Origin: Zopfochytrium polystomum
Lineage: Eukaryota; Chytridiomycota; Chytridiomycetes; Chytridiales; Chytridiaceae
Assembly: GCA_025765615.1 (NCBI GenBank)
Contig: JAIVFJ010000027.1
Coordinates: 186,001-250,000 of the forward strand
DNA length: 64,000 nt
Direction of reading: 5' to 3'
The notes under the pieces: model-generated
The model's database searches: none
What the model was told of the DNA's origin: nothing
The model's input: only the letters and a program-made list of their open reading frames with translations
Part shown: one piece after another, positions 4,880 to 61,063 of the stretch
Layout of the letters: each line of letters starts with the position of its first letter
Position numbering within the stretch: position 1 is the stretch's first letter
Position numbers and translations under genes: made by a program

Positions 4880-6597
4880 CCATGCGGCTTGTTGAGGAGA
4901 TCGGTGAGCTGATCGAAGGAGGGGATGTGATCAACCTGCACAAGTCCTTCCTGAACAAGCGACCAGATGTGGTGTACGAAGTCGAATGTGCTTGGAGCAG
5001 TCCGTATGAAGATCATTCACTGTCATGTGGATTGTCAGTGTGTTGTCCTCATAAGCAGTCAGTGGTAGCTTGAGAGGCATCTTGACTGATAGGTGAAGGT
5101 TGTTAATAGCCTCAAGCTCCCGACCAATTCACTGAGGGCAATATACTCTGCTGCTGTTGATGATGTTGGGACTGTTGACAAATGCATCAACTTCCACCCA
5201 ATTGCTCCCCCTGCTAGCAGCACAAGGTATGCTATCTGTGAGTGAGAGTCATGGCGGGAGTTGAATGATGCGCGTGCGTATCTGACAGGTTGATGGTTGC
5301 TGTCTGCACTGTTTCAGTGGCCTTGACATACCCAACAACATCCAGTAGCTCACACCAATGCCGTCTGCATGGATCCTGACAAAGGAGCCAAGTAGACTGA
5401 CACTGAGTGCAAGGTCTGGTCTGGTTGATGTTGCTGCGAAGTTGAGGCTGCCGATCACTCAGAGATACTCAGTGCTGTCAACACTCTTCGTCAGGTCTGG
5501 CACACAAGGGGTGAGCTTGGAGGTAGACTTGAGTGGTATGCCTTGAGGTCTCACGGTGCTGTGTTCAGCCTCAAAGTGAGATAGGAAGTTTCAGATGAAG
5601 TTAGCTTGGTGAATGATTGTGAAGTTTGAATCACAGATAACTTCCATTGAGAGAAGGTAGGTGAGCTTCCCAAGCTCCCGAAGCTTGAACTCCCCCTTGA
5701 GGTCAGCAATCGCATCCTTGATGGCAGCAGTGTGACCAAACAAGGGAAGGTCATCAATGTAGGTGAGAATCTCCATGCTCGTTCTGCTGCTAGGACAAGC
5801 ATGGGTCCGCCTGACTTTGTAATCCCTTTGACCATAGGTGTGCTGCAAGGCGCAGGTACCAAGTCCAACCTGATTGCTTTAGCCTGTACAATCCCTTCCA
5901 ACCAAACCATTCCAGGGGATTGGTAAACCAGATGGCAGCGCCATGAAGATGGCGACATCGAGGATTCCATACAGGTAGGCTGAGGAGATGTCGATCATCT
6001 CCATGTCCCAGCCATACAAGGTGCTGAGAGCAGTCATCCATCAGAGAGTGTTACCTCAAATTACCAGCAAGTATGTCAGAGTGAAGTCAACGCCAGGCTT
6101 GTCAGGAACAGGGCAGGACAGGACAAGGCAGACAAGGAACTGAGAGGAGTGATGATTGTATTGGAAACAATAATTCACTTGAGGGATGGGACAGGTCCCC
6201 CCATCCCCCTTTTATACCTTTGGAGAGTCTTCCTTGTCAAGACTCAAAGAAAGTTCCAGAAAGAGCAATTAGTAATACAATGATACCAAAGATACCAATG
6301 ACAACAAGACAAGTCAGGAAAGCAAAGAAGGTTCCAGAAGGTTCCACAAGGTTCCATGAAGGAATGTTCTAGAAGGTTCCAGAAGGTTCCAGAAGGTTCC
6401 ATGAAGGAATGTTCTAGAATGTTCCAGAAGGTTCCAGAAGGTTCCATGAAGGAATGTTCTAGAAGGTTCCAGAGGTTTCCAGAGGGTGATTCATAACAAG
6501 GCTCCTGCATGAAACCACAAGCAACAAGTCTCACACGAAATTGTTCAATGGTGCCGTCAGGTTTGAACTTCAGCTTGTATACCCACTTACAACTCAC
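4880..6597 (-). pseudogene. copia reverse transcriptase/RNase H remnant
   Basis: Recognisable copia pol blocks in order are: CKWVYKLKFKPDG and RLVACGFMQEP (about 6597-6499), then after the solo LTR PGVDFTLTY (about 6098-6072), the polymerase box ILTYIDDLPLFG (about 5770), LGKLTYLLSMEV, TRPDLALSVSLLGSFV (about 5400), and the RNase H end with AYEDNTLTIHMT and HIWSLVQEGLVQVDHIPS finishing in LLNKP (about 4900). YIDD carries the catalytic Asp pair. Frameshifts and stops separate most blocks, so no functional polymerase is encoded. These motifs place it in Ty1/copia rather than Ty3. Confidence 0.85.
6100..6498 (-). mobile_element. Solo LTR of Ty3 family 1 in copia RT, TSD AGGCT
   Basis: This 399-bp LTR is in minus orientation (TGTTATGAATC end at 6498, CCTGACA end at 6100). 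It is flanked by the 5-bp direct repeat AGGCT (6095-6099 and 6499-6503), proving transposition followed by LTR-LTR recombination. It has the longest heat-shock-element block of all LTRs here: three copies of a module of about 45 bp. The insertion lies inside the copia RT frame; the two flanks read continuously once the LTR and one TSD copy are ignored. Confidence 0.95.
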
Positions 6598-11006: not shown

Positions 11007-11035
11007 TGTTATGAATCACCCTCTGGAAACCTCTG

Positions 11036-11132
11036 GAACCTTCTAGAACATTCCTTCATGGAACCTTCTGGAACCTTCTGGAACCTTCTAGAACATTCCT
11101 TCATGGAACCTTGTGGAACCTTCTGGAACCTT
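11036..11132 (+). promoter_or_regulatory. Tandem heat-shock elements in LTR U3
   Basis: HSF binds alternating inverted GAA units spaced by two bases. Positions 11036-11053 read GAAnnTTCnnGAAnnTTC (four perfect units). Positions 11061-11098 give GAAnnTTCnn repeated four times (eight perfect consecutive units). Positions 11105-11132 give six more with one mismatch (TTG for TTC). This lies 110-210 bp upstream of the TATA box, a normal place for an activator. The match is visible in the sequence; heat induction is inferred. Confidence 0.75.
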
Positions 11133-11243
11133 CTTTGCTTTCCTGACTTGTCTTGTTGTCATTGGTATCATTGGTATCATTGTATTACTAATTGCTCTTT
11201 CTGGAACTTTCTTGGAGTCTTGACAAGGAACACTCTCAAAAGG

Positions 11244-11289
11244 TATAAAAGGGGGATGGGGGACCTGTCCCATCCCTCAAGTGAATTAT
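11244..11289 (+). promoter_or_regulatory. LTR core promoter: TATA box and predicted RNA 5' end
   Basis: TATAAAA at 11244-11250 is followed by an 8-bp inverted repeat (GGGATGGG 11253-11260, CCCATCCC 11269-11276). The 11-mer AAGTGAATTAT (11279-11289) then starts 35 bp after the TATA box, where transcription would be expected to begin. That 11-mer is the exact reverse complement of the presumed primer site at 11362-11372. The TATA-inverted repeat-11-mer layout is kept in nearly every family-1 LTR in the window. Confidence 0.6.
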
Positions 11290-11361
11290 TGTTTCCAATA
11301 CAATCATCACTCCTCTCAGTTCCTTGTCTGCCTTGTCCTGTCCTGCCCTGTTCCTGACATC

Positions 11362-11372
11362 ATAATTCACTT
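11362..11372 (+). other. Putative self-primed primer-binding site
   Basis: ATAATTCACTT begins two bases after the 5' LTR. It does not start with TGG, so it is not a conventional tRNA-type site, but it is perfectly complementary over 11 nt to AAGTGAATTAT near the predicted transcript start. Self-priming of this kind is established for Tf1 of fission yeast. It is also present after LTRs at 13505 and 58557. Confidence 0.6.
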
Positions 11373-11399
11373 CACCCTCTCCTACTACTCTCTGCCATC

Positions 11400-12323
11400 A
11401 TGTCTGACCCAAACAACACCTTCCCTGATGCAACTGCCTTCCAAGCCTTGATGGACCAATTACAAGCCCTTTCAAGACAGACACACCAACTTCAAGAACA
11501 AGTCCTTCACCAGCAGCACCAGCTTCAACAACAACTTCACCAACAAGAACATCAAGCTCTTCCCCTGCCCCAAGCCAACCAAGCAAGAGAGCCCAAGGTT
11601 CCCAGCCCTGACAAGTTCACTGGGCTGGCCAAAGACCTTAGGAACTTTATGGCCACTGTGGAGAATGTCATCCTTCTCCAACCTTCAAGATTTCCCAGTG
11701 AGCAAGTCAAGGTTCGTTTCACAAGCACCCTCCTGTCTGGTCAAGCTCAATCATGGTACAGATCTCTCCCAAGCACACCCACCACCCTGCAAGAGCTCTG
11801 GGAGGGGCTGGAAGCTACCTTTGGTGACCCCTACGCATCTTGGACAGCAAGATCCAAGCTCAAGCATATCAAGCAAGGAAAGCAATCTTGTGTGGCCTAC
11901 ACCAACCAATTCAAGCAACTAGCCAGAGACTCCGGATACAATGATGCAGCTCTGATGGAGCTGTACCATGATGGTCTCCATGAGTCTATCCAAGACATGC
12001 TCTCCCAGTCTCTGCACATCCCTGAGACCTTGGAAGAGTACATTCTCCTTGCCATCAAGATTGACAACAGACTCTACTCCAAGAGGCTGAAGCAAAGACA
12101 AGTAGGAACTACATCAAGACCTACCCCAGTCCCTCAAGCTCTTACAGTTCCTGAACCCATGCAAGTGGATGCAGTTGAGACACTTCCTAAGGGTCCTCTG
12201 AGCCAAGAGGAGAAAACAAGGAGGGCCCAGCAGGGACTGTGTTTCTACTGTGGCTCCAAGGAGCATGCTGTCAAGGACTGCCCAAGGAAGAAGCACCCAA
12301 ACTCCCAGGTCCAGGCTCACTGA
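11400..12323 (+). CDS. gag: Ty3 family-1 Gag
   Basis: A 307-residue capsid/nucleocapsid precursor. A Gln-rich N-terminus with coiled-coil character (residues 10-60) precedes a retrotransposon gag core (about 70-230; SGQAQSWYRSLPSTPTTLQELW and ATFGDPYASWTARSKL). One CCHC zinc knuckle near the C-terminus (CFYCGSKEHAVKDCP) would bind the element RNA. The start ATG is 40 bp after the LTR. The frame is intact up to TGA at 12321-12323. Pol overlaps it in the -1 frame from 12239, with a slippery heptamer at 12296-12302. It assembles the virus-like particle in the cytoplasm. A near-identical but broken copy is at 58598. Confidence 0.93.
   Translation: MSDPNNTFPDATAFQALMDQLQALSRQTHQLQEQVLHQQHQLQQQLHQQEHQALPLPQANQAREPKVPSPDKFTGLAKDLRNFMATVENVILLQPSRFPSEQVKVRFTSTLLSGQAQSWYRSLPSTPTTLQELWEGLEATFGDPYASWTARSKLKHIKQGKQSCVAYTNQFKQLARDSGYNDAALMELYHDGLHESIQDMLSQSLHIPETLEEYILLAIKIDNRLYSKRLKQRQVGTTSRPTPVPQALTVPEPMQVDAVETLPKGPLSQEEKTRRAQQGLCFYCGSKEHAVKDCPRKKHPNSQVQAH
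12296..12302 (+). promoter_or_regulatory. Candidate -1 ribosomal frameshift heptamer
   Basis: In the gag frame CAC CCA AAC forms the heptamer C CCA AAC, which fits the X XXY YYZ rule for -1 slippage. Slipping here moves translation directly into the protease frame (reading LPGPGS). The gag stop is 19 bp further on. The site is conserved in the copies at 13.86 kb and 59.49 kb. Confidence 0.55.
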
Positions 12324-13192
12324 GGGGCAATTCCCTGGACCCTCCTCCAAGCTGCCCCTGTTTCATCACCACCACCAGCACCACAAACACCTCAGATTCC
12401 AAGCCCCACCAACTCACCATGGATGTCAAGATTCAACTCTCACCCAAGTCAATCATCACAACCAAGGCCCTTATCGACTCTGGATCATCCTGCAACATCA
12501 TTGATGCCACCCTTGCCAAGTCTTGTGCCATTCCCACCATCAAGAAATCCACACCCCTCAAGGTCCACTTTGCCAATCATGCTCTGTTCAAGGAAATCAG
12601 CCATGAAACCAAGCTAAACCTCCACATCCAAGACTTTCCACCATCCATGGTCAACCTGGAAGTATTGGATCTTGGCTCACCCACATTCTCTGTCATCCTG
12701 GGATTACCATGGCTGCAAGCCCAGAACCCTGACATTGATTGGGTCACTGGTCAAGTCCAACCTCCACCAATTGGAACAGTCACCCAAAACTCAAGTCAAG
12801 CCCCCAAGTCTCATGCTCTCAAGCCCTTGATTCAAGATTCACAGCCAGCCAAGACTCAAGTTCCACAGTTCACAGTTCACAGTCAAGATTCAAGTAGAGC
12901 TCATAGAGCTCACAGTCATGGCCAAGACTCTAGTTCACAGAACCCACAGTCAAGGATTCAAGTACCACAGTTCACAGTCCACATTCAAGATTCAAGTTCC
13001 ACAGCTCACAGTCTTTGCCAAGAACAGAACTCTCAGTCAAAGATTCAAGAATCACAGTTCCCAGTCAAGAATTCATGCCCCACTGCTGAAGAGCACAGGA
13101 ACTTGGACCCATCAGACCTTTTGCTGGCATCCAAGCTACCAAAAGAATATCTCCCTTATGCTGATGTGTTTTCCAAGACCAAGGCAGACCTG

Positions 13193-13505
13193 TGTTATGA
13201 ATCACCCTCTGGAAACCTCTGGAACCTTCTAGAACATTCCTTCATGGAACCTTGTGGAACCTTCTGGAACCTTCTTTGCTTTCCTGACTTGTCTTGTTGT
13301 CATTGGTATCATTGGTATCATTGTATTACTAATTGCTCTTTCTGGAACTTTCTTGGAGTCTTGACAAGGAACACTCTCAAAAGGTATAAAAGGGGGATGG
13401 GGGACCTGTCCCATCCCTCAAGTGAATTATTGTTTCCAATACAATCATCACTCCTCTCAGTTCCTTGTCTGCCATGCCTTGCCTTGTCCTGCCATGTTCC
13501 TGACA
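13193..13505 (+). repeat. 5' LTR of the mini-element
   Basis: A 313-bp LTR with one heat-shock-element module, TATA box and the AAGTGAATTAT 11-mer. The primer-site complement follows two bases after the LTR. It differs from the outer LTRs in the U5 tail (GCCATGCCTTGCC variant). Confidence 0.96.
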
Positions 13506-13545
13506 TCATAATTCACTTCACCCTCTCCTACTACTCTCTGCCATC

Positions 13546-13887
13546 ATGTCTGATCCAAACAACACCTTTCCTGATGCAACTGCCTTCCAAGCCTTGATGG
13601 ACCAATTACAAGCCCTTTCAAGACAGACACACCAACTTCAAGAACAAGTCCTTCACCAGCAGCACCAGCTTCAACAACAACTTCACCAACAAAAACATCA
13701 AGCTCTTACAGTTCCTGAACCCATGCAAGTGGAATCAGTTGAGACACTTCCTAAGGGTCCTCTGAGCCAAGAGGAGAAAACAAGGAGGGTCCAGCAGGGA
13801 CTGTGTTTCTACTGTGGCTCCAAGGAACATCTTGTCAAGGACTGCCCAAGGAAGAAGCACCCAAACTCCCAGGTCCAGGCTCACTGA
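13546..13887 (+). CDS. gag: Internally deleted Gag of the mini-element
   Basis: A 113-residue open frame: the N-terminal Gln-rich region of Gag (about 60 residues) is joined directly to the C-terminal zinc knuckle (CFYCGSKEHLVKDCP). The whole capsid core is missing. The joint lies in TCAAGCTCTT, a 10-bp sequence found at both ends of the missing segment in the full-length gag. The frame stays open to the normal TGA. It could not form a particle alone; whether it is translated or serves only as RNA is unknown. Confidence 0.85.
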   Translation: MSDPNNTFPDATAFQALMDQLQALSRQTHQLQEQVLHQQHQLQQQLHQQKHQALTVPEPMQVESVETLPKGPLSQEEKTRRVQQGLCFYCGSKEHLVKDCPRKKHPNSQVQAH

Positions 13888-15394
13888 GGGGCAATTCCCT
13901 GGACCCTCCTCCAAGCTGCCCCTGTTTCATCACCACCACCAGCACCACAAACACCTCAGATTCCAAGCCCCACCAACTCACCATGGATGTCAAGATTCAA
14001 CTCTCACCCAAGTCAACCATCACAACCAAGGCCCTTATCGACTCTGGATCATCCTGCAACATCATTGATGCCACCCTTTTCAAGTCTTGTGCCATTCCCA
14101 CCATCAAGAAATCCACACCCCTCAAGGTCCACTTTGCCAATCATGCTCTGTTCAAGGAAATCAGCCATGAAACCAAGCTAAACCTCCACATCCAAGACTT
14201 TCCACCATCCATGGCCAACCTGGAAGTATTGGATCTCGGCTCACCCACATTCTCTGTCATCCTGGGATTACCATGGCTGCAAGCCCAGAACCCTGCCATT
14301 GATTGGGTCACTGGTCAAGTCCAACCTCCACCAATTGGAACAGTCACCCAAAACTCAAGTCAAGCCTCCAAGTCTCATGCTCTCAAGTCCCAGATTCAAG
14401 GTTCTCAGCCTAGTATCCAAGGTCAACCACAAATGACAGCTCCAGTATCAGCCTGCAGCTCACAGATCCCAGCCAAGATTCAAGTTTCACAGTTCACAGT
14501 TCATAGTCAAGATTCCAGTACAGCTCATAGAGCTCACAGTCATGGCCAAGTCTGTAGTTCACAGAACCCACAGTCAAAGATTCAAGTACCACAGTTCACA
14601 GTCCAAATTCAAGATTCAAGCTCCACAGCTCACAGTCTTTGCCAAGAACAGAACCCTCAGTCAAAGATTCAAGAATCACACTTCCCAGTCAACAATTCAA
14701 GCCCCACTGCTGATGAGCACAGAAGGACAGACCTTGCACCTGAAGGGGGAGATGGTTTCACCCCACCATCCAAGACACACCTTTCACTGCTTCCAGACAG
14801 TGTGTGGGCCCACGCTATTTCCAAGGACCCCAAGCCTCACAAGATTAAATCAGCCAAGAAGAGGAAAAACTTGAGATACTCAAGACAAGGCATGATGCAG
14901 CAACAGCTGGACACCCAGGAGAGCACAAGACATATGAGCTTGTTTCCAGAGACTTTTACTGGCCAGGCATGAGGAAGAACTTGCAGACCAAAAGACCAAG
15001 TCCCAAGCTAGACAACCTCAAGTTGGGTCCTTTCAAGATCTTGGAGCAAATCAATCCAGTCACCTTCAAGCTGGATCTCCCTGCATCCATGAAGATCCAC
15101 CCAGTTTTCCATGTCAGCCTTTTAGAGAAGTTTGTGGCCAATTCCATTCCAGGCAGAGTTGTTCCTCCTCCTCCTCCAGTTGAGGTAGAAGGTGAAGAGG
15201 AATTTGAGGTTGAACAAATCTTGGATGCCAAGTGGTTTGGAAGAACACTCAAGTTCCTTGTTAAGTGGAAAGGTTACTCAGATGCTGACAACACCTGGGA
15301 GCCTGAGTCAAACCTCACTCACTGCCAAGACCTTCTGCTCGAGTTCAAGACCAGGTACCCCACCAAGTTGCAGAAGAGGCCTAAAAGGGGGAGA
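13866..15394 (+). pseudogene. pol: Deleted Pol of the mini-element
   Basis: The protease domain (DSGSSCNIIDA) is followed by the Ser/Gln-rich linker, slightly longer than in the outer copy. It then jumps to the end of RNase H (RRTDLAPEGGDGFTPPSK). A one-base deletion near 14846 shifts the frame. After the start of the integrase zinc region (WPGMRK) a second jump, at the 8-bp repeat TGAGGAAG, joins the C-terminal part and chromodomain (FLVKWKGYSDADNTWEPE). RT, most of RNase H and the catalytic integrase are gone. Confidence 0.88.
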
Positions 15395-15397
15395 TGA

Positions 15398-15710
15398 TGT
15401 TATGAATCACCCTCTGGAAACCTCTGGAACCTTCTAGAACATTCCTTCATGGAACCTTGTGGAACCTTCTGGAACCTTCTTTGCTTTCCTGACTTGTCTT
15501 GTTGTCATTGGTATCATTGGTATCATTGTATTACTAATTGCTCTTTCTGGAACTTTCTTGGAGTCTTGACAAGGAACACTCTCAAAAGGTATAAAAGGGG
15601 GATGGGGGACCTGTCCCATCCCTCAAGTGAATTATTGTTTCCAATACAATCATCACTCCTCTCAGTTCCTTGTCTGCCATGCCTTGCCTTGTCCTGCCAT
15701 GTTCCTGACA
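15398..15710 (+). repeat. 3' LTR of the mini-element
   Basis: A 313-bp LTR, identical by eye to its 5' partner at 13193-13505. It is preceded by the purine tract AAAAGGGGGAGATGA and followed by TSD ACCTG, after which the outer pol resumes with [11 protein letters not shown]. Confidence 0.96.
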
Positions 15711-18469
15711 ACCTGCTACCAGCTCAGAGGCCTTATGACTGTGAAATCCCACTCAAGGATGAAACTTGCAGCCCACCTTTCAAGCCACTGTACCACCTCT
15801 CTCCACCAGAAGCCAAGGCCCTCCAAGAATACATTGAAGAAATGCTGAGCAAGGGATTCATCCAACCTTCCAAGTCACCAGCTGGAGCTCCCATCTTTTT
15901 TGTCAAGAAGAAGGATGGGGGGCTGAGACCCTGCGTGGACTACAGAGATCTCAATGAAAGAACCGCTATCCACTGCCTCTCATCTCTGAATTACTGGACA
16001 AACTGAGCCATGCAAGGATATTTTCCAAGATTGACCTCAGAGGTGCCTACAATTTGGTCAGAATGAAGCCCCAGGATCAATGGAAGACTGCCTTCAGACG
16101 CAAATATGGTCACTTTGAGTACTTGGTCATGCCCTTTGGACTTACCAATGCTCCAGCTATTTTCCAAGGCATGATGAATGACATCTTCAGGGATATTCTG
16201 GACCTTTTTGTCATTGTCTACCTGGATGATATCCTGGTATTTTCGTCTGACACTGCAAGCCATATGGGACATGTCAAGACTGTCTTGGAGAGACTCAGAC
16301 AGCATCACCTCTATGCAAAGCTGGAGAAGTGTGAATTCCACAAGACCTCCATTGAGTTTTTGGGGTTCATTGTGTCTGACAAGGGGATCTCCATGGCACC
16401 AGACAAGATCCAAACTATTCTTGAATGGAAGGCTCCAAATTCCATCAAGGATGTTCAAAGCTTCCTTGGGTTTTGCAACTTCTACAGAACCTTCATTGCC
16501 AACTATTCTGCCATAGCCAAGCCTCTCACTGATCACCAAGAAGACCACCAAGTTTGAATGGACCCCAGCAGCAGAGCAAGCCTGGCTAGCTCTTAAGACA
16601 GCAACCACAAGTGCACCACTCCTTAAGCATGTGGATCCCTTGCTTCCCTTCACCTTGGAAACTGATGCCTCAGACTATGCCCTTGGTGCTGTTCTGTCCC
16701 AGCCAAGCTCTCAGGACCCCTCTGCTCCTCTGCATCCAGTGGCATATTACTCCAGGAAGCTGAACAGTGCTGAGTGTAACTACACAGTCCATGACAAGGA
16801 GTTGCTTGCAATTGTGGAAGCATTCAAATTCTGGAGACACTACTTGGCTGGTTCTAACGGCATCTCTGTCTATTCTGATCACAAGAACCTCACCTTCTTC
16901 AGGGCAAGGAGGTTGCTCAAGCAGAGGCATGCCAGGTGGGCTGAACTGCTCTCTGAGTATGACTTTAAGCTGTGCTATTCTCCTGGCCACCGTAACACTG
17001 TGGCCGATGCCCTGTCAAGAAGAACAGACCTTGCACCTGAAGGGGGAGATGGTTTCACCCCACCATCCAAGACACACCTTTCATTGCTTCCTGACAGTGT
17101 GTGGGCCCATGCTATTTCCAAGGACCCCAAGCCTCACAAGATTCAAATCAGCCAAGAAGAGGAAAAACTTGAGATACTCAAGACAAGGCATGATGCAGCA
17201 ACAGCTGGACACCCAGGAGAGCACAAGACATATGAGCTTGTTTCCAGAGACTTCTACTGGCCAGGCATGAGGAAGTACATCAAGAACTATGTCAGCAGCT
17301 GTGAAACCTGTCAAAGAAACAAATCCAGCAGACACAAGCCCTATGGACTTCTGGAGCCCCTCCCAATTGCCATCAGCCCTTGGTCATCAATATCCATGGA
17401 CTTCATTGTGAAACTGCCCCCATCCCATGGATTTGACTCTATCCTTGTTGTCATCTGCAGAAGGACAAAGTTGGCCCATTTCATCCCCTGCACTGAGAAT
17501 ATAGATGCACAAGGAACAGCAGACCTGTTTTTGCAGCACATATTCAGGCTCCATGGGCTGCCTCAGTCAATCGTCAGTGACAGAGGACCACAGTTCAGAT
17601 CTCAATTTTGGAAAGCACTCACAGCTGCCCTTGGAATCAAGTCTCAACTGTCAACTGCTTATCACCCTCAGACTGATGGACAAACAGAAAGAACAAACCA
17701 GACTCTGGAGCAGTATTTGAGGTGCTATGTCAGCTATCAACAGGATGATTGGCCCACCCTCCTTCCACTGGCAGCATTTGCTCTCAACAATTCTCTCCAC
17801 TCAAGCACCCAGCTATCTCCTTTCTTTGCAACCTATGGCTTCAATCCAAGAGGAGATCTTCTGGGACAAGAGACCCTATCCAATGTCCAAGCTCCTGCTG
17901 CGGCTTCACACTTACATAAGCTCAAGATCATCAACTCCTTCCTGGACTCCACCCTGAAGCAAGCCCAAGAAGATGCCTCAAGATTTGCCAACACTCACAG
18001 AATGGACCATGACCTTGCTGTGGGTCAGCAAGTTTGGCTTCTGAGGAAGAACTTGCAGACCAAAAGACCAAGTCCCAAGCTAGACAACCTCAAGTTGGGT
18101 CCTTTCAAGATCTTGGAGCAAATCAATCCAGTCACCTTCAAGCTGGATCTCCCTGCATCCATGAAGATCCACCCAGTTTTCCATGTCAGCCTTTTAGAGA
18201 AGTTTGTGGCCAATTCCATTCCAGGCAGAGTTGTTCCTCCTCCTCCTCCAGTTGAGGTAGAAGGTGAAGAGGAATTTGAGGTTGAACAAATCTTGGATGC
18301 CAAGTGGTTTGGAAGAACACTCAAGTTCCTTGTTAAGTGGAAAGGTTACTCAGATGCTGACAACACCTGGGAGCCTGAGTCAAACCTCACTCACTGCCAA
18401 GACCTTCTGCTCGAGTTCAAGACCAGGTACCCCACCAAGTTGCAGAAGAGGCCTAAAAGGGGGAGATGA

Positions 18470-18777
18470 TGTTATGAATCACCCTCTGGAAACCTCTGGA
18501 ACCTTCTAGAACATTCCTTCATGGAACCTTGTGGAACCTTCTGGAACCTTCTTTGCTTTCCTGACTTGTCTTGTTGTCATTGGTATCATTGGTATCATTG
18601 TATTACTAATTGCTCTTTCTGGAACTTTCTTGGAGTCTTGACAAGGAACACTCTCAAAAGGTATAAAAGGGGGATGGGGGACCTGTCCCATCCCTCAAGT
18701 GAATTATTGTTTCCAATACAATCATCACTCCTCTCAGTTCCTTGTCTGCCTTGTCCTGTCCTGCCCTGTTCCTGACA
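18470..18777 (+). repeat. 3' LTR of outer Ty3 family-1 element
   Basis: A 308-bp LTR preceded by the polypurine tract AAAAGGGGGAGATGA (about 18455-18469) and followed by TSD TGGTG. It has one heat-shock-element module against two in the 5' partner. Confidence 0.97.
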
Positions 18778-19067: not shown

Positions 19068-19375
19068 TGGTATGAATCACCCTCTGGGAACCTCTGAAAC
19101 CTTCTAGAACATTCCTTCATGGAACCTTGTGGAACCTTCTGGAACCTTCTTTGCTTTCCTGACTTGTCTTGTTGTCATTGGTATCATTGGTATCATTGTA
19201 TTACTAATTGCTCTTTCTGGAACTTTCTTTGAGTCTTGACAAGGAAGACTCTCAAAAGGTATAAAAGGGGGATGGGGGGACCTGTCCCATCCCTCAAGTG
19301 AACTATTGTTTCCAATAAGTCATCACTCTTCTCAGTTCCTTGTCAATCTTGTCCTGTCCTGCCCTGTTCCTGACA
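19068..19375 (+). mobile_element. Solo LTR of Ty3 family 1, TSD CTGTT
   Basis: Starts TGGTATGAATC (one change from TGTTATG) and ends CCTGACA, with CTGTT at 19063-19067 and 19376-19380. It carries point changes, including one in the 11-mer (AAGTGAACTAT), so it is older than the LTRs of the nested elements. Confidence 0.93.
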
Positions 19376-20202: not shown

Positions 20203-22578
20203 ATGAGTGACATGGACGTCGACGACAAGGCCCCACTGAAGCTGGAAGGTGTGGCGGATCTATTTTGAAAGGGGGAAGTTTGTTCTTACACAGCGATGCT
20301 TCTGGTGCGCGTATCTTTTCCAACACGCCCTGCGCCTCAGTGCTGGAGATGATCACGGACTCCCGCAACCAGCACGGTCTTCGCCATCAGGATTACCAGA
20401 GGTATCGTCAGTACTGTACACGCAAGATCAAGCGTGTTCGGAGCGTTGTTGGCCTGACTCAGGGGGAAAAGAAGAAGAAGTTCCTCAAGAAACCGATCAC
20501 ATCAGAATCCGTTAAGAGCAGCAGGTTTGAAGTTGAACCCTACTAGTCCTCTCCTTCTTAACCGTTGTTCGAATTGCCAGGCATTTAGAAATTGTGCTGT
20601 ACGAGGCAGAACGAGCGTGGAGCTACGCAATGCAGTTAAAAGCAGAGTCCGCCGCTTCACCGCGGAAGCGATTTCATCTCGTTAAGCGTCTTCAACGCGC
20701 ATCTCAGAACGCCAACAGTCTTGCAGCGCTTTGCCAGGAACTGGAAACAGACGATCGAACCAACCTTGAAGTCCAGGTTAGTAACGGTGCATCAGCATAC
20801 ATTGCAGGTTTGGAACTGAGGCATATGAAGGCGTATTCCCTTCTGATGGGAGGGTACTTGAACGTGGAGTGCCAAAAATGGCAAGTTGCCCTCGACAAAT
20901 TTGGGGCCTCTCGGACTATATATGAGAAACTTCTCTCTGCGAGCTCGGCACACCAGGAGGCCTTGTGCCAATCTTTCATCGATGCAATTGATCCGAACAT
21001 TCGGTACTGCGCGTACAATCTCCGCCTGGTTGGTGGTAGTGAGCCGAACCAGGACATCTCCGCTTTGCTCGAGATGCGCCGCCGCGCTCAAGGCGCCGGC
21101 GCCGGTTTAGATTTACTTGCTGCCCAAGTTGACGAGGTCTTGGCGCGTTCTCGTCATGATAGAGTCGCCGGGTCCTCTGCCACCGCCACAATTGAGTGGA
21201 GGGGCAAAGTTGTTCCCTGCAAGAACCAAAGGTTCATGGAAGCGCTAATGGCTGCCCAGGAGGCCGCTGCGAGTTTAGAGTCCGAGATCACCAAAGATGG
21301 ACCAATTTTGGATGAAACGAGCGGAAAGGTGCGAAGTGAAATCGTTGACAAAAGGGTCGAAAGCTACGCGAAAGTGGTTGGCTCATTTTGGGACGCAACA
21401 AAGATTGCAGAGGCGGATGTCAAAGAGGACGAGGTAAGAAACTGCACCGTCTTGGAGCGAGTCGCTGAAAGCGCTACCGCCCCAGATTGCAACGAACCGT
21501 GTGAAGTCGTCGAAGTCTGAAGAAAACACTGCGAATTTGAAGTTTATCCATTCCTACGTGTCTTTTGTTCGTTTGAACAAAACCATCGAAAGGAATCAAT
21601 TTTTGGCCGAAGCCACCACCATTAGACTGACAACAGCTACCGCGATTTCCGACAAAAAGCAGCCAAAGCCCTTTGACCTTGTTCGAGTCGACGATATCAT
21701 CCTACAAACGCTGAAAGAGATGTCAGAGTTACCGGCTGTCAAGGATGACCCATTTCTGCAGTCCACACTTTCGGTGAAGATGGCTGCGTTCAAGGGAAAG
21801 AGGTGATTTCTTGTGAGTAACGACCAGGAACAAATCTTACCAACTGTTGTCTTCTCTGGATTGGTTGTTGTATCAAATCCTATACAGGGCCGCTCACATC
21901 GCCCAGATGCTCGTTAGTCATCAGAACTTCAAGGAGGCACTTGCACTGTACAACAGGGCCAAAGAGCACACTACGCAAGCGCGTGCTGAGCTCACTCGCA
22001 TTCAGTCAAAGACAAAGTCGGGGGCAGGAAAGAAAACTGCGGCACCAGGGTCTTATTTGTCGGAGGCAGACAAACTTGAAATGGACGCTCTGGATCGGGA
22101 AGTCCGTTCCGCTGACGAGTCGTTCAGGGCGGGCTTTGCTGAAACTCACGCGCTCTGGGTGTTGCGAGGTGCAGCGGGTGTTGCTGGTAGTGTATCTAGC
22201 CTTGGAAAGGAAGTGGAATCCCTCGCATTGAAGGAAGATCCACACGCGGGAGCGCTAGCGACAGAGCCATCGCCATCGGCCAAAATGGACGCCTTTTTGA
22301 CCAACTTTGATCTAAGCCGACCTCCTGCCTTCGTAGACTTCCCTGTACGACCCAATGCTGTTCCACTCAAGCCGTACTTCTTTGACGTTGCGTTTAACGA
22401 GCTTACATATCCCGAGGAAAATATTCGCCGAAGGTCTGCCGGGCTTAGTCGCCTTGCATCATCAACAGCAATTGAGGCAGACCTCTCTGGACAAAAAGGT
22501 TCGCCAGCGAACCCGCCCGGCTCGCCCGCAGCCTCTAGCATCGGGGGTTTCTTGAGTGGGTTATGGTCGCGAAAGTAA
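20203..22578 (+). CDS. SRP68: Signal recognition particle subunit SRP68
   Basis: SRP68 binds 7S RNA together with SRP72 and belongs to the particle that targets nascent secretory proteins to the ER. The RNA-binding domain starts with the family signature HGLRHQDYQRYRQYC (about 20370-20415), followed by RKIKRVRSVVGL. After an intron near 20545-20590 comes ERAWSYAMQLKAE and PRKRFHLVKRLQRA. Further exons run to about 21433, 21486-21800 and about 21890-22578, with small introns (one ends ATACAG near 21890). The C-terminus holds the expected conserved block DLSRPPAFVDFPVRPNAVPLKPYFFDVAFN. The start at ATG 20203 (MSDMDVDDKAPLKLE) is plausible, but the first intron is not resolved because the frame changes between 20250 and 20270. 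Confidence 0.9.
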
Positions 22579-25768: not shown

Positions 25769-28700
25769 ATGCAATCCCACAACGACGACGAGGGCGCCGC
25801 CGCCGCCGCCGCCGTGGCCGCAGCGGCTTCAGCAACTGCGGATACCGCCGCGTCTTTGCTGTCGCCGACTGCATCAAGCAGCCCACGCAGCATCCCGCGC
25901 GCCCAAGCCGTGGTGGAAGCAGCTGTCCTTGTGAACCCGTCCCGCTCGCCACCGCAACAAACAGCCTCCTCCTTTCCCCCTCTATCCTCAACACCCCCCT
26001 TGCCGTCATCTCCTCGGCTCGCACAGAGGGCAATTAACAGTGCTGCGTCGGCTCCGCAAGGTTCTTATACCAATGTGACCTTCAACGGCGCATCGTTCAC
26101 CGAGGGCTTGCCTCGCCTGTCTTCGTCCCCTCCGGCTGGCCTGAGCACATTCTTGGCTCGCCGCCAAACTTCGCAGCTTTCGCTGGCTGGAGGCGTCCAG
26201 GAGCCTGCCGATGTCTCTGGGAGCGGCGGGCCCTCACACCAAGCACCTCCAGAAAATACTTTAGTCGAATCAAACGCTTCGCCCTCAATTTCAGCTGCAA
26301 CTGTCAGCCCGCGGTCTCGAATAAGTAGAGAATTCACGGCCGACCGGATAGAGACCGTCGGCGATCAGGACTTTCGATCTCTAACGGCAGTCTTGGGCAC
26401 ATCTCCCCCGAGGCGCGGTGCCGTCCGCGGCAGCTTTTCTCTCCTTGCTTCGCTTTCGTCCACTCCGCCAGAGGCCCAGTATTCAATTCGATCATCACCC
26501 TCTTCTTCAACATTTCCGGATTTGAATGTGCGGGGTGGTGATGACGGAGGTACAACGCGAAGCAGTCACCCGTTTGGTCGGCGGTCGTCTTTCCTAAACA
26601 GATCAATCCATTCTGAGCCGTCGGAGCCCCCCTTAGAATACGGAAAAATCATCGTGCTTGGTTATAAAGCATCGCTTACGGCGTTCTCAACGGGATCGTC
26701 GAAAGTAAGTCTATTTTCATTGGCACTGTGCCACTCAGCGTGACAAATGATCTCAACAAATGCTCTCCAATTGTCAGGTCCAGACACTTCGTGAAGGTGA
26801 TCATAGTGCTCAATTGACAGAGTTGAATTTAAAAACTCGATTGTCTACTTTATCAGGGGGCAGTCACACTTTTTATCTCCACCGTCGTTCTTCTCCCAAC
26901 GGCTTTTCCACCCCAAAGGCCGTCCACGATGTTGATCCAGACCTTCCGTCCTCCCAACATGTCTCGAACTTCTTGTTCAATCTTCAAGTTAACCCAAAGG
27001 ACTCTCCTCTCATCACCATGATCCAACCGATTGCACAGCTGATGCAAATCATACCCAACCATCCGTCGGATATCATTCCAGACTCCCCCTCCACGTCTCA
27101 TCCAAGTTCAGCTCGGTTGGAGCGTTCAAGCAGCTTTCATCAGCAGCTTACACCCCAGCCGCGCCAGTCAATAAGCATTCTGGAAGCCGGCTCGTCGGAT
27201 GGCAGGCCTCAATATGATCTACTAAGCGGAAGGCTTGAGGACAACCGAGAAGGCTCGTTTCGATCGCCACGTCGGCGGCATTCTTCCATGAGTGTTGGAG
27301 ATGGGTCTATTCGCAGCATACCAAGCGAGGAAGTCGTCGGTGGCTCCTCTGGCAGTTTCGGAAACGATATGCCCTCCAAAACCCGCTGCATTGCTTTGAA
27401 GGTATGTTACTTAAAGTTAGCGGATAACTCTTACGTGACGCGATTGTTGGTCAAAACAGTCTCCGTCCGACCCTTCTAAGTATATCATCAATTGGTGCAA
27501 ACACTCTGAGTCTACCGATCTTTTCCAGGTCTGAAGTTGCATTTTGTATCTATTCTAAACTTTTATGAAGATGGGACGCGAGGCTGGACAAGGCGTAGAT
27601 ATGCTTGTGCCCGGTCCATCGTATATTCGACAGCGCAGTTCTTGGAGTGCAGAGTCCTCTGGACCAAGGCATTCGCCTTTTTTAATGACGTCGCATCAGC
27701 CACGATTTCCATTTCGGTTGCTTTGCTCGAGATCCGCTCCATACACTACGCGAATATTCGCGGGAGCATTTGACGCCCAGGGAAGATTGGTCCTGGGGAA
27801 AAAGTCCATTCGATTTACTGCAGGTCACAAGACCAGGCGAGACTGGCGAATGAGCACACCCAGCACAAACATAAGTTCCATTTCGGTCGACGCCCTTCCA
27901 GAGAGCTCTGTTCTGGTTTGGAGAAGGGACTGGATAGACCCGGGAGCATCACGATGGTCTCGTAGTGAACTGAAAGGACGGTGGGTTGAGGTTTCGGCTG
28001 TTAGAGGTAATGCCTATTCTTTGAGGCCCGATCCCAAGAGCAAAGGCCAAAAAATCGAAGAGTTGGACGATGGAGAAGACGGCCTTAACCTTGGGGATGA
28101 AGCAATTATCTATGCGGGAGGGGTTTGCTTTTGGTGGAAGTCCTCGCAAGGCAAAGGGGAGATTGATGAGGTTGGGGTTTCGTCACAAGCAAGTGAAAAG
28201 AAGTCCATGGCTGCTAAAACCTGGGGACTTGAGTCTTTTAGTGAGATGATGCAAGACTTCGAAAGAAAGGTGGGAGCTTCGAAGTTTGCAATGACTCGTA
28301 ACGTGTTTCACAAGGTTATTTGCCCGGTGACGCTTGATAATATACTCGTCGATCACATGGCCGAGTCTATCAGTGGAAGGTCCTTGAAGCCATGGAGTCG
28401 GCTCTTTACTCGTCTTCGATGGACTCAGGAAGCTGCAGGCAATGAGAGTACAGAAGCAGACAATGCTCTGAATCTTCAAGAAGCTTTAAGTGCTTGCTCC
28501 GATGTAGGCGAGGGGCAAAATCTGGTTACAAAACGGCCCTGGGTCTTCATAGCCTGTGGGCATGTTGTCTCTTTTATCGAACCCAAGTTTCTTCGTCCAG
28601 TCGTAGAGGAGCGGCGGCGCAGTCTTATAGGAGGAGGGCAGGATGTTGAAAATGCAGCACAAGAAGCAGAGGCAACAGCGGAGGCGAACCAAGCTGCATA

Positions 28701-29184
28701 CGCGTTTGACCCACAATCTGCAGCAGCAGCTATTTCCGCGCTTCGTACGCACTGCGTTGTATGTCGGACGGTTTCTCGATTCGTTCCCCTTGTTGCTCGT
28801 GCGCAGCCAGACTTGCTCTGCGGTCCAGCAGCATTTGTTTTCGATCCTTGCGGACACGTCATTCATGAAGAAGGAGCAACTATGTGGGGAAGAGAGGTCG
28901 CTGTTCCTCGGCTCGCAACGGTTGCACGAGATGCCAACGGCGTCATTCGAACGACCGCCAAGGCGCACGGCATTGGCACCCCAGTGATTGGCACAGACTT
29001 GGAGGCGCCTGCTGTAACAGACACCGCAGCCGTGTGTGGACCTGTTCGCGTGGAGGAGTATCCCGGCTTCAGCCTGTTTGGAAGTGCACCCCGCGCGGGT
29101 GGAACTGGTGGGTGGTGCCATTTTTGCCCGTTCTGCGCTACGGAGACAGTTGGTGTCCGAAGACTTTACTGCGTTACGGAGTGA
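25769..29184 (+). CDS. Pellino-type E3 ubiquitin ligase
   Basis: Pellino proteins use an FHA-like domain to bind phosphoproteins and a C-terminal RING-like domain to ubiquitinate them; in animals they act in Toll/IL-1 receptor signalling. After a Ser-rich N-terminus of about 280 residues comes the FHA start YGKIIVLGYKASL, then (exon from about 26778) TFYLHRRSSPNGF, a short exon ending ESTDLFQ, and MGREAGQGVDMLVPG. The FHA wing region reads YTTRIFAGAFDAQGRLVLGK and GDEAIIYAGGVCFWWKS. The RING-like part has ICPVTLDNI, RPWVFIACGHVV, CVVCRTVSRFVPLV, FVFDPCGHVIHEEGATMW and HFCPFCATE. The domain order matches animal Pellinos throughout. Exons: about 25769-26704, 26778-27402, 27466-27532, 27566-29184. 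Upstream kinases and substrates are unknown outside animals. Confidence 0.85.
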
Positions 29185-38912: not shown

Positions 38913-39603
38913 TAGTTGACAGACTGGGCAGAAATGCAAAGTCCTACTATGCCTGGCCAATGGCCCCTCACTTTTGGAAATGACTTAGGACTGAAACACT
39001 TCTGTGGGAGAAGTGCTAAGCCCAGATGGACAGAGTTAACAAGATGATGGCAGAGCTAACAAGCCCTACCACCTGCTACCATGATGTAATACCTCATAAA
39101 AAGGGTATGAGATCACAGGGTTTTTCTTTATCTTTTCATTGGTGATTTTTACTTATTTTTCCAATTAGTAATTTATCCTGTTTTTCCTGTTTTTCCTGTT
39201 TTCTCTTTTATTTCTTCCTTGTTGTCTCTGTCTGTGTCTATTCTTTCTTGTGTGGCTGAGAGTGACTGTCTTCCTCTTTGCACCAACCAGCTCTCTCCAT
39301 CTCCTCCATCTTTCTTGGCAGCTGATGCCAAGAAATGCTCCATGATTTTCTGAGCTGTCTCCCTTGTTTGATGGCTCAGCCCCATTGTTTGGTGACTCAC
39401 TCCTCCTCTCCCTTCTTTGCTGTTTTATTTATTGTTTTGTTCTTTTGTATATGTTTTCCCCTCTTTTCCCTTCCTTCTTCCTTCACCCTGCTGATTCCAA
39501 CCCTTTCCTATTTAAGCAGCTGCCCCCCATCTTGTTGACTGTGAGAACCTGTGCCTGAAGTCCCTTGCCTGCCCTTTTCTTCCTGACTGTATGTAGAGCT
39601 GGG

Positions 39604-39689
39604 GGTGGCAGTCCCCTGGTGTGTGACAGGAGGTTGAAGTCCTCTTGGCCATGATGGCAGTGTGCTGGGTTCAAGCCCCAGTGCACCTC
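39604..39689 (+). other. Class-II tRNA-like fold inside family-2 LTR
   Basis: An 86-nt segment folds as a tRNA with a long variable arm. It has a bulged acceptor GGTGGCA/TGCACCT, D stem GTC/GAC, anticodon stem GGAGG/CCTCT with 7-nt loop TTGAAGT, variable arm GCCA/TGGC, and a perfect T stem CTGGG/CCCAG. The B-box-like GGTTCAAGCC is present. The homologous copy at 60978-61063 has loop TTGGAGT (anticodon GGA, Ser). It starts about 95 bp after the LTR TATA box, so it would sit near the 5' end of the element RNA. The acceptor bulge argues against a working tRNA. Confidence 0.6.
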
Positions 39690-41221
39690 ACCAATTCTGC
39701 ATGCTGTTTAGGTTGGACTGGGTAGGAGCCACTTGGTGATGGAAGGATGGAGGGTAAATCTGTGGTGGTGCCTCTAGGTTCCTGTCAATACATCTAGTCA
39801 AATCCAGGTCTCTCAAGGGGATATGAATGAGCTGTCTGGTCAGGTACTGCTGCAGGAATGGTCTCTCAGGTATGCCCCCTCTTCCCTGGTTGTTGGCTCC
39901 TGTGGCCTCTGGTGGGCCTGGTCTTCACTGGGTTCAGACCCTCTTTCTCTCAGATTAATGCCTGTGATGTCATGGTGTCACATTTGGGTGAGGGAGTGGG
40001 TGTTAACCTTCCTTGCTTCTAAGATAGGGAATTCCTCTGGCTTGGTGAAGCAGATGTCTGTGTCCTAGTAGGATGAAGTAAGAAGAGTCCCACTGTCTCC
40101 CACCCCTGTGTGCCCCCTCCTTGGATTGAGTTGGAACTTCTCCTTGGAGTGAGACAAGTTGTGTCTGGTTCTGTTAAGTGGAAAACAGTTCTGATTTAAT
40201 TCAACAGACACCTCTGCACACTAACTGTTCCTTGTGTTTGCCCTCTGTGTCCAACCCCCTCCAACTTAGGGCTTGTCTTTGACAGAGAGGGAGCCTTGCT
40301 CCATGGTGGTGGCTCCAACAGACCAGGGTCTGGCCACTTTCCTCCCCACTCTCTTGTCTTCTTCAGTTGGATTGGAGTGCTGCACTTAGTGCCGCTCCCT
40401 GGAGCTTGCTGCATCTTGCACCTCCAGCATTGTTACCGGATTTCCCGGTCCCCTTTGGCTTTGGCTTTTGCCTCCCATTGGGCCCACTCTGTGTCATGGA
40501 CCAGAGAACCCTGCACATTCTTTGCTAGTGTGCCACCTTTTCACAGCTGCCTTTGGTCTGAGTGTGAGAGTCTTCACTTTGTGTGTAGTAAGAGAGTTTC
40601 TTTGTGTTTCTTGGGCTTCTTAAGACTCCAAATACATTGTCCTGTCTAGTGACCCCTAGACATCTCCTTTTTGCCCTTTTTCACTTTTCAGGATTGGTAT
40701 TTAGGCCATTGCTCTATTTGCCACCCATAGCCCAGGGTGAGGATTTAGAGAGCACAGTCTCACACATATCACATTTGATATCTTTGCCCCCATTTTGGCG
40801 CATTGACAGCGTCCCAAACTATTAGTTAAGACCCTATGGAACCTTGCACATTTCTTCTTCATAATGAGGGAAAGTTTCTGCCAAAACAGCCACCATTTTT
40901 AATGCGTAGAACACAAGGTACCACTTGTTTTAAAACATAGCAATATTGTATATTTTTTTCTGAATCATGCCAAAATCTTGCCCAGCCATCTGGCAGCCTT
41001 GCTCTTTTCCACAAATGTGCATTGGCATATTCTCTATGCAGATCAAATCAGCTTGCACAAGATTTGCTTTTGAAAGTGGTCATTTCAGGATTTGCCGCAG
41101 TGGGGTTGGAACCTTTAACCCATTCCTTTTTTGAACCCCCAACTGCTCAAATAGGCCACAAAAGGAACCATTAAGGAAAAAAGTCTACTCTGAGTGATGT
41201 AGTGGAAGGAGTGAATGACGT

Positions 41222-41955: not shown

Positions 41956-42378
41956 GGTCTCCCCACAGAGGAAAAATGATTTGAAATCTTCAGGAGCATT
42001 TCAAATCAACCAAGGTCTGTCCAGAGTGTTATGAATCACCCTCTGGAAACCTCTGGAACCTTCTGGAACCTTCTTTGCTTTCCTGACTTGTCTTGTTGTC
42101 ATTGGTATCATTGGTATCATTATAATACTAATTGCTCTTTCTGGAACTTTCTTTGAGTCTTGACAAGGAAGACTCTCAAAAGGTGTAAAAGGGGGATGAG
42201 GGACATGTCCCATCCCTCAAGTGAATTATTGTTTCCAATACAATCATCACTCCTCTTTGTTCCTTGTCTGCCATGTCCTGTCCTGCCATGTTCCTGACAC
42301 AGAGGTCTGTGTCCTGTGACCAGACTTCCCACCGAGGAAAGATTATTTGAAATCATCAGGGGCATTTCAAATCAACCA
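41956..42378 (+). repeat. Direct repeats flanking a family-1 solo LTR
   Basis: Two diverged direct repeats of about 57 bp (about 41956-42012 and 42321-42378) share the core TTTGAAATC...CAGG..CATTTCAAATCAACCA. The solo LTR at 42027-42299 lies between them. Their origin is unknown. Confidence 0.6.
42027..42299 (+). mobile_element. Solo LTR of Ty3 family 1, TSD CAGAG
   Basis: A 273-bp LTR from TGTTATGAATC to CCTGACA, with CAGAG at 42022-42026 and 42300-42304. It is the shortest copy: it lacks the repeated heat-shock module and keeps only the proximal GAAnnTTC cluster. The TATA is changed to GTAAAA; the 11-mer AAGTGAATTAT is intact. Confidence 0.94.
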
Positions 42379-58248: not shown

Positions 58249-58597
58249 TGTTATGAATCACCCTCTGGAACCTTCTGGAACATTCTAGAACATTCCTTCA
58301 TGGAACCTTGTGGAACCTTCTGGAACCTTCTTTGCTTTCCTGACTTGTCTTGTTGTCATTGGTATCATTGGTATCATTGTATTACTAATTGCTCTTTCTG
58401 GAACTTTCTTTGAGTCTTGACAAGGAAGACTCTCAAAAGGTATAAAAGGGGGATGGGGGGACCTGTCCCATCCCTCAAGTGAATTATTGTTTCCAATACA
58501 ATCATCACTCCTCTCAGTTCCTTGTCTGCCTTGTCCTGTCCTGCCCTGTTCCTGACATCATAATTCACTTCACCCTCTCCTACTACTCTCTGCCATC

Positions 58598-60977: not shown

Positions 60978-61063
60978 GAGGTGCACTGGGGATCGAACCC
61001 AGCACACTGCCATGATGGCCAAGAGGACTCCAACCTCCTGTCACACACCAGGGGACTGCCACC
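60978..61063 (-). other. tRNA-Ser(GGA)-like fold inside family-2 LTR
   Basis: 86 nt on the minus strand: acceptor GGTGGCA/TGCACCT with one bulge, D arm GTC...GAC, anticodon stem GGAGG/CCTCT around loop TTGGAGT (U33 present, anticodon GGA), variable arm GCCA-TCA-TGGC, T arm CTGGG-TTCGATC-CCCAG, then CACC. The B box GGTTCGATCC fits the pol III consensus. It lies about 90 bp downstream of a TATTTAA box (61153-61159), inside the presumed R region of the LTR. Confidence 0.6.

What the first reader, a model, noticed from the sequence alone, without database searches (positions are those of the whole stretch)
11036..11132. Retrotransposon LTR promoter built from tandem heat-shock elements
U3 of the family-1 Ty3 LTR holds GAAnnTTC arrays: four perfect half-sites at 11036-11053, eight perfect consecutive ones at 11061-11098 and six with one mismatch at 11105-11132, all 110-210 bp upstream of a TATA box. 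Eight alternating units at exact 5-bp spacing exceed ordinary heat-shock promoters. Heat-activated elements are known in plants (ONSEN, a copia element); a Ty3 chromovirus in an apparent early fungus with such an array would be an independent case of stress-coupled transposition.
Basis: partly seen in the sequence, partly recalled or inferred. Interest (0 to 1): 0.9.

Follow-up and report, generated by a model that had tools for sequence, protein, structure and literature searches.

The report
Heat-shock arrays power chytrid retrotransposon
A jumping element with more than 1,800 LTR (terminal-repeat) promoter copies in a fungal genome, very probably that of the chytrid Zopfochytrium polystomum, carries long, exactly spaced rows of heat-shock motifs upstream of its predicted start site, so it would likely be switched on by the host's heat-shock factor; if tested and true this would be a clear fungal case of stress-coupled jumping.

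Summary
Window 11035-11134 holds twenty 5-bp units in one register: 17 perfect alternating nGAAn/nTTCn units, one with a mismatch, two TTCAT spacers. It is the U3 of a self-primed chromovirus LTR (11007-11359). A separate perfect three-unit heat-shock element (HSE) lies 31 bp upstream of TATA; its core is intact in 43 of 44 LTR matches. Genome-wide, perfect four-unit HSEs occur 7,339 times against 10 for the reversed pattern, six-unit HSEs 2,188 against 0. The array grows in 45-bp steps of eight perfect units plus TTCAT (961 such modules). The genome encodes canonical HSFs, and 11 of 13 small-HSP upstream stretches carry one four-unit HSE of the same layout (11/12 letters, 30-74 bp before TATA), so the element exceeds the host genes examined. 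HSF-driven, probably heat-inducible transcription is the best explanation; binding, heat response and transposition are untested, and a test for selection on core bases was inconclusive. Relatives in kind: ONSEN, Caenorhabditis Helitrons, DIRS-1. A 2026 Cryptococcus paper calls HSF-driven TE activation undescribed in fungi.

The parts
11007..11359 (+). 5' LTR (TG...CA) of the outer element, 353 bp, one 45-bp module longer than its 3' LTR
   Evidence: target-site duplication TGGTG on both sides of 11007-18777
11035..11134 (+). distal HSE array in U3: 20 units of 5 bp in one register (4 perfect, TTCAT, 8 perfect, TTCAT, 6 with one mismatch)
11055..11099 (+). one 45-bp expansion module (TTCAT plus eight perfect units); because the stretch is repetitive the 45-bp difference to the 3' LTR can also be placed elsewhere, e.g. 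11032-11076 as one search reports it
11198..11212 (+). proximal perfect three-unit HSE (nTTCnnGAAnnTTCn), 31 bp upstream of TATA
   Evidence: unchanged in 42 of 44 aligned LTR matches, core intact in 43
11244..11251 (+). TATA box (TATAAAAG)
11279..11289 (+). predicted RNA 5' end / start of R: 11 nt complementary to the PBS (self-priming); 35 bp downstream of the start of TATA
   Evidence: Tf1-type self-priming as described for Tj1 in PMC4600332. Inferred start site
11362..11372 (+). primer binding site, 2 nt after the LTR, complementary to 11279-11289
11400..13192 (+). gag (11400-12323) and aspartyl protease frame of the outer element, interrupted by the nested insertion
13193..15710 (+). nested, internally deleted relative: gag-protease region plus the C-terminal integrase/chromodomain part; its two LTRs are identical over 313 bp; duplication ACCTG; short-form arrays
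15958..18469 (+). outer element's RT (15958-16554) and, in another frame, RNase H-integrase-chromodomain (16631-18469)
18470..18777 (+). 3' LTR of the outer element, short array form; identical to the 5' LTR apart from 45 bp
19068..19375 (+). solo LTR with a partly degraded array (duplication CTGTT)
6100..6498 (-). solo LTR, longest array form (two 45-bp modules), duplication AGGCT
42027..42299 (+). solo LTR with the shortest array, duplication CAGAG
58249..58557 (+). 5' LTR of another, decayed copy; its variant array has a six-unit perfect block

Best explanation
The U3 of this chromovirus LTR is an array of canonical heat-shock elements placed upstream of a TATA box, and it likely works as a heat-shock-factor-driven promoter that would couple transcription of the element, and so its transposition, to host proteotoxic stress. 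Shown: the in-register array, the separate proximal three-unit HSE, TATA and self-priming geometry, canonical HSF-domain genes in the same genome, the same HSE layout upstream of most host small-HSP genes looked at, and array lengths that differ in 45-bp steps that keep register. Inferred: HSF trimers would bind cooperatively, several per LTR, and raise transcription from the predicted start at 11279 under heat or other proteotoxic stress. Longer arrays would bind more HSF and give a stronger promoter; the modular growth would arise by slippage or recombination during reverse transcription or after insertion.
For: Array far beyond chance: 7,339 four-unit and 2,188 six-unit perfect sites in the genome against 10 and 0 for the reversed patterns. 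1,845 LTR promoters carry the proximal HSE-to-TATA block within 3 mismatches, control 0. Proximal HSE core intact in 43 of 44 LTR matches. Host HSP20: 11 of 13 upstream stretches have an 11/12 four-unit HSE 30-74 bp before TATA, against 1 such site in 60.6 kb of background. HSF domain: 14 exon matches, 8 fetched, all 8 with SFVRQLNMYGFHK; the domain of L005 matches solved HSF2 and HSF1. TATA to predicted start is 35 bp, set independently by the self-priming sequence. Recent activity: the outer LTRs are identical but for 45 bp, the nested LTRs are identical. 13 of 20 full-length-sized LTR spacings among the 100 listed copies are in the +45 class; six LTRs from three of these all have the eight-unit module. 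In Brassicaceae COPIA elements, four-unit HREs went with up to thousand-fold induction (PMC5059998, passages).
Against: No expression or binding data. Selection test inconclusive: in 32 short-form copies 4 of 30 core and 4 of 20 spacer sites of perfect units vary. Over the same listed stretch of the genome, 32 of 100 core-intact modules have changed spacers and 6 of 74 spacer-intact modules have changed cores, but 23 of the 32 carry one inherited spacer variant, and distinct variants are about equal, 5 against 4 (counted by eye). One half-site (CTTGT) is broken in most copies. Only 4 of 16 HSP70 loci (3 distinct promoters) and not all HSP20 loci (2 of 13 lack it) showed an 11/12 site. Fungal Hsf1 can also work without heat (recalled), so induction is less sure than binding.
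Confidence: 0.72

Rival explanations
1. The array is HSF-bound but serves as a strong constitutive or growth-linked promoter; transposition is not specially tied to heat.
For: Long gap-free HSEs are expected to bind HSF even at low activity (recalled for yeast Hsf1). The family is very abundant, 1,845 LTR promoter matches, which ordinary growth could explain.
Against: The same HSE layout sits upstream of 11 of 13 host small-HSP genes scanned, which are normally heat-induced (recalled). In plants four-unit HREs track heat induction (PMC5059998, passages).
Confidence: 0.15
2. The array is a passive 10-bp/45-bp tandem repeat that spreads with the element; its HSE form is a coincidence.
For: Array length differs by 45 bp even between the two LTRs of one element. 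Core and spacer bases vary about equally when distinct variants are counted.
Against: A random 10-bp unit would hold GAAnnTTC in some rotation about 0.24% of the time (10/4^6, arithmetic). A second, out-of-register perfect three-unit HSE lies at a host-like distance from TATA. The unit types GGAACCTTCT and AGAACATTCC differ only at spacer bases.
Confidence: 0.08
3. The array is read by another factor, such as a Skn7-type HSF-domain regulator or a silencing factor, and answers another stress or recruits repression.
For: The genome has several HSF-domain genes (14 exon matches), and HSF-domain regulators share the DNA contact helix (recalled).
Against: The layout equals that found upstream of host HSP20 genes, and all 8 fetched HSF-type domains of 14 matches have the classical helix.
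Confidence: 0.05

Closest known systems
ONSEN/COPIA78, TERESTRA, COPIA37 (Brassicaceae Ty1/copia; PMC3907296 and PMC5059998, passages read)
   Same: HSE (HRE) in the LTR; four-unit type; in ONSEN built by duplication of a proto-HRE
   Different: Copia (recalled as Ty1-type), not Ty3; four to six nGAAn motifs rather than 10 (short form) to 26 (two-module form) in-register units; heat induction and HSFA2 binding were measured there and not here
Caenorhabditis Helitrons with HSE clusters (PMC6927752, passages read)
   Same: A TE class supplies most of a genome's HSEs, often as tandem clusters; some copies hold more than 100 HSEs
   Different: DNA transposon, animal; HSF-1 ChIP and induced neighbour genes were shown there
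DIRS-1 of Dictyostelium (Zuker 1984; only the title seen, in the reference list of PMC2685390)
   Different: Inverted terminal repeats (title); tyrosine-recombinase element in another lineage (recalled)
Cryptococcus TCN3 and TCN12 LTRs (PMC12810828, passages read)
   Same: Fungal LTR retrotransposons with putative HSEs and heat-linked mobility
   Different: Two and one putative HSEs, no array mentioned; HSF role inferred only; the paper calls HSF-driven TE activation undescribed in fungi
MAGGY of Magnaporthe oryzae (PMC3978060, passages read; Ikeda 2001 recalled, not seen)
   Same: Fungal LTR element reported as stress-responsive (its chromovirus class is recalled)
   Different: The terms heat shock element, HSE and heat shock factor do not occur in the paper read
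Tf1/Tf2 and Tj1 (self-primed elements of fission yeasts; PMC4600332, passages read)
   Same: PBS complementary to the mRNA 5' end; Tf2-1-like SH3 domain match in the integrase region
   Different: No HSE array mentioned in the passages read

Membership tests
Ty3 chromovirus (chromodomain LTR retrotransposon) | gag, protease, RT, RNase H, integrase in that order with a C-terminal chromodomain | tested here: met
   (in separate frames in this copy)
Ty3 chromovirus (chromodomain LTR retrotransposon) | LTRs TG...CA with 5-bp target-site duplication | tested here: met
   TGGTG, ACCTG, CTGTT, AGGCT, CAGAG
Tf1-type self-primed elements | PBS just after the LTR complementary to the RNA 5' end | tested here: met
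   11 nt; an 11-nt match to the LTR at 25 of 4,000 random places; the RNA end itself is predicted, not mapped
HSF-driven (ONSEN-like) transposable element | at least three or four contiguous alternating nGAAn units in the promoter LTR | tested here: met
HSF-driven (ONSEN-like) transposable element | matching HSF and same HSE layout in host heat-shock genes | tested here: met
   (HSP20 11 of 13; HSP70 4 of 16)
HSF-driven (ONSEN-like) transposable element | HSF occupies the LTR | not testable with these tools
   needs ChIP or EMSA
HSF-driven (ONSEN-like) transposable element | transcripts rise with heat and depend on HSF | not testable with these tools
   no expression data held
HSF-driven (ONSEN-like) transposable element | HSE core conserved above spacer bases | tested here: inconclusive

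The most novel reading that the evidence does not exclude
The LTR is a self-lengthening heat-shock enhancer: register-keeping 45-bp modules of eight perfect HSF half-sites are gained and lost between the two LTRs of single elements, giving a dial of HSF dose per copy. The family has thereby become nearly the sole owner of gap-free HSEs in its host genome, so that heat would both fire the element and let its thousands of sites draw off HSF and bring neighbouring genes into the heat-shock response, a first such case in fungi.
Probability: 0.3. Interest if true: 0.82.

Novelty: new variant of a known kind. Interest (0 to 1): 0.63.

Why it matters
[quoted passage not shown] This family offers an unusually clear candidate: up to 26 perfect units in the 173-bp upstream part of U3 among the copies read, in a probable chytrid, with natural length variants that form a ready dose series, recent copies (identical LTRs) and host HSP20 promoters as internal positive controls. 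It makes stress-coupled transposition directly testable in an early-diverging fungus, and it raises the question of what thousands of strong HSF sites do to a host's own heat-shock response.

Tried and rejected
Core-versus-spacer conservation as proof of selection: copies too young, inconclusive. The first scans of HSP70 promoters gave little because minus-strand loci were not turned round; corrected. An rRNA search for identity failed on the machine; identity came instead from a window protein (97% identical over 100% to a Zopfochytrium polystomum record on a contig of 462,809 bases, the length of contig C27). LTRs of relatives in other species: I had no collection with chytrid DNA to scan; one search gave protein relatives only (best 68%). 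Literature on this species or on chytrid retrotransposons with HSEs: (two papers name the species; one hit on another subject); no paper on this family was seen there. Ikeda 2001 on MAGGY and Zuker 1984 on DIRS-1 were not read.

Full report
What is there. The array is real. Between 11035 and 11134 twenty 5-bp units follow one another in a single register: four perfect alternating nGAAn/nTTCn units, TTCAT, eight perfect units, TTCAT, and six units of which one is CTTGT. Fifty sequences simulated from the window's dinucleotides gave 0.06 four-unit chains per 64 kb and nothing longer. Tandem Repeats Finder reports 11018-11134 as 10-bp and 45-bp repeats.

Setting. The array lies in U3 of an LTR at 11007-11359 (TG...CA). 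The outer element spans 11007-18777 with duplication TGGTG; a second, internally deleted relative (13193-15710, duplication ACCTG) is inserted into it. Pfam shows gag, protease, RT, RNase H, integrase and a C-terminal chromodomain, so it is a Ty3 chromovirus. This copy is interrupted, and its RT and RNase H-integrase parts lie in different frames. Eleven nucleotides 2 nt after the LTR (11362-11372) are complementary to 11279-11289, the arrangement of self-primed Tf1-type elements (PMC4600332, passages). That predicts the RNA start at 11279, 35 bp downstream of the start of TATA at 11244. The array then lies at -244 to -145. A second, separate perfect three-unit HSE lies at -81 to -67, 31 bp upstream of TATA. 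It is unchanged in 42 of 44 aligned LTR matches and its core is intact in 43.

Host. A window protein is 97% identical over its whole length to a Zopfochytrium polystomum record whose contig length, 462,809, equals that of the window's contig, so the host is very probably this chytrid (Chytridiales). Some genes occur in near-identical pairs on different contigs (e.g. L007 and L008), so haplotypes may be uncollapsed and copy counts inflated.

Genome-wide. GAAnnTTCnnGAAnnTTC occurs at 7,339 places against 10 for the reversed pattern; six units at 2,188 against 0. Four overlapping six-unit places at C5:43355-43412 make a perfect 12-unit chain, the longest I saw in the listed places. A four-unit site with W/W spacers, which this family was not seen to use, occurs once; other spacer combinations were not counted. 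In 294,169 held bases outside the LTR matches there are two three-unit chains and none longer. The proximal HSE-to-TATA block is found 1,845 times within 3 mismatches, control 0; the 45-bp module 961 times within 3 mismatches, control 0. With two four-unit places per short array and three more per module, about 2,200 LTRs would account for all 7,339 places (my arithmetic). Nearly all gap-free four-unit HSEs of this genome thus seem to belong to this family; that is an accounting, not a place-by-place check.

Array forms. Of 43 LTR matches from the window and fetched loci, 41 had a readable 5' end: 32 with an 83-bp upstream part (short array), 3 with 128 bp, 3 with 173 bp, and one each of 48, 73 and 93 bp; 1 of the 43 has no array. 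Two further partial matches, both in L087, were set aside by the script, although that LTR, read by eye, has a short-form array. Steps of 45 bp are eight perfect units plus TTCAT. The two LTRs of the outer element are identical except for 45 bp, and the nested element's LTRs are identical, so array length changes on a short time scale and the family was active recently. Among 100 listed exact promoter copies (of 1,845 matches), 20 neighbouring same-strand pairs have full-element spacing: 13 at 4,949-4,953 bp (the +45 class), 6 at 4,907-4,908 and 1 at 4,864. All six LTRs read from three of the 13 carry the eight-unit module. The listed copies are the exact ones, so the youngest.

Host heat-shock logic. 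Fourteen exon matches to the HSF domain; all 8 fetched have SFVRQLNMYGFHK, and the domain of L005 matches solved HSF2 and HSF1 structures. Of 13 fetched HSP20 upstream stretches (of 33 matches), 11 have a four-unit HSE with 11 of 12 core letters, 30-74 bp before TATA; 2 have none. Of 16 HSP70 loci scanned (of 30 fetched and 58 matches), 4 have such a site, from 3 distinct promoters, and one more has a 10/12 site; 11 have none. The background is 1 site of 11/12 or better in 60.6 kb of the window. The HSP20 genes are paralogues, so these are not independent. None of the 29 host loci scanned has more than one four-unit site at 11/12 or better, and none has a perfect one.

What does not support the reading. 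If the core were under selection, spacer changes should outnumber core changes. In 32 short-form copies 4 of 30 core and 4 of 20 spacer sites in perfect units vary. Two shared core changes in imperfect units both restore a perfect half-site, but each is in only 2 of 32 copies. Genome-wide, modules with all cores intact number 1,045 and modules with all tested spacers intact 930. Over the same listed stretch (to C13:211,437) I count by eye 68 exact modules, 32 with changed spacers and 6 with changed cores; but 23 of the 32 carry one inherited C-to-A spacer variant, and distinct variants are 5 against 4. Beyond that stretch the listing shows one further core variant, in both LTRs of one element on C16, so a core change can be passed on. 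Selection is neither shown nor excluded.

How it most likely works. HSF trimers would bind the distal array and the proximal element and fire transcription from about 11279, as HSFA2 does at the ONSEN LTR (PMC3907296, passages). Because U3 is copied from the RNA's 3' end into both new LTRs, an array lengthened in the 3' LTR would be passed on to both LTRs of the next copy (general retrotransposon knowledge). Binding, heat induction and transposition are inferred.

Known kinds. ONSEN and related COPIA elements (four to six nGAAn motifs; PMC5059998, passages), Caenorhabditis Helitrons (tandem HSEs, most of the C. elegans HSEs; PMC6927752, passages), DIRS-1 (title only). In fungi, Cryptococcus TCN12 and TCN3 have one and two putative HSEs, and the authors write that heat-shock-induced activation via host machinery remains undescribed in fungi (PMC12810828, passages). 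Magnaporthe elements respond to heat stress (PMC3978060, passages). Searches for this species or for chytrid retrotransposons with HSEs gave no paper on the subject. I therefore rate it a new variant of a known kind: known principle, new host group and element class, and an unusually long, modular array.

Noticed in passing
window 27565-29184 (+): Gene with Pellino FHA and Pellino RING domains, a ubiquitin ligase family best known from animals (recalled); the one search made returned three proteins, the Zopfochytrium record and two Phlyctochytrium species (only the 7,996 best candidates scored).
   Followed up: partly
window 13193-15710: Internally deleted chromovirus that keeps a gag-protease region and the integrase end with chromodomain; no RT or RNase H match was found in its frames scanned. 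Identical LTRs, inserted in another copy. Repeated LTR spacings of about 2,828, 3,602, 4,016 and 4,160 bp suggest several such deleted subfamilies.
   Followed up: partly
G000 contigs C11 (43038, 47054, 51070) and C18 (60666, 64268, 67870; 210673, 214833, 218993): LTR promoters on one strand at equal repeated spacing in a row, as in tandem LTR-internal-LTR-internal-LTR chains from LTR recombination.
   Followed up: no
window 38949-40259 and 60410-61685: Long inverted repeat pair (78-96% by piece), not identified; the second arm may belong to the decayed copy that starts at 58249.
   Followed up: no
window 19068-19375 and 20594-22578: A solo LTR with HSEs lies about 1.2 kb upstream, same strand, of frames matching SRP68: a possible case of an LTR-supplied heat-shock element near a host gene.
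   Followed up: no
window 62047-62844 (-): Frame with a weak chromodomain match below the Pfam cut-off.
   Followed up: no
L007/L008, L044/L045, L078/L079: What look like near-identical gene copies on different contigs, suggesting uncollapsed haplotypes or recent duplication in the assembly.
   Followed up: no
G000:C5:43355-43412: Overlapping six-unit places that together make a perfect 12-unit HSE chain, longer than any array in the window.
   Followed up: no
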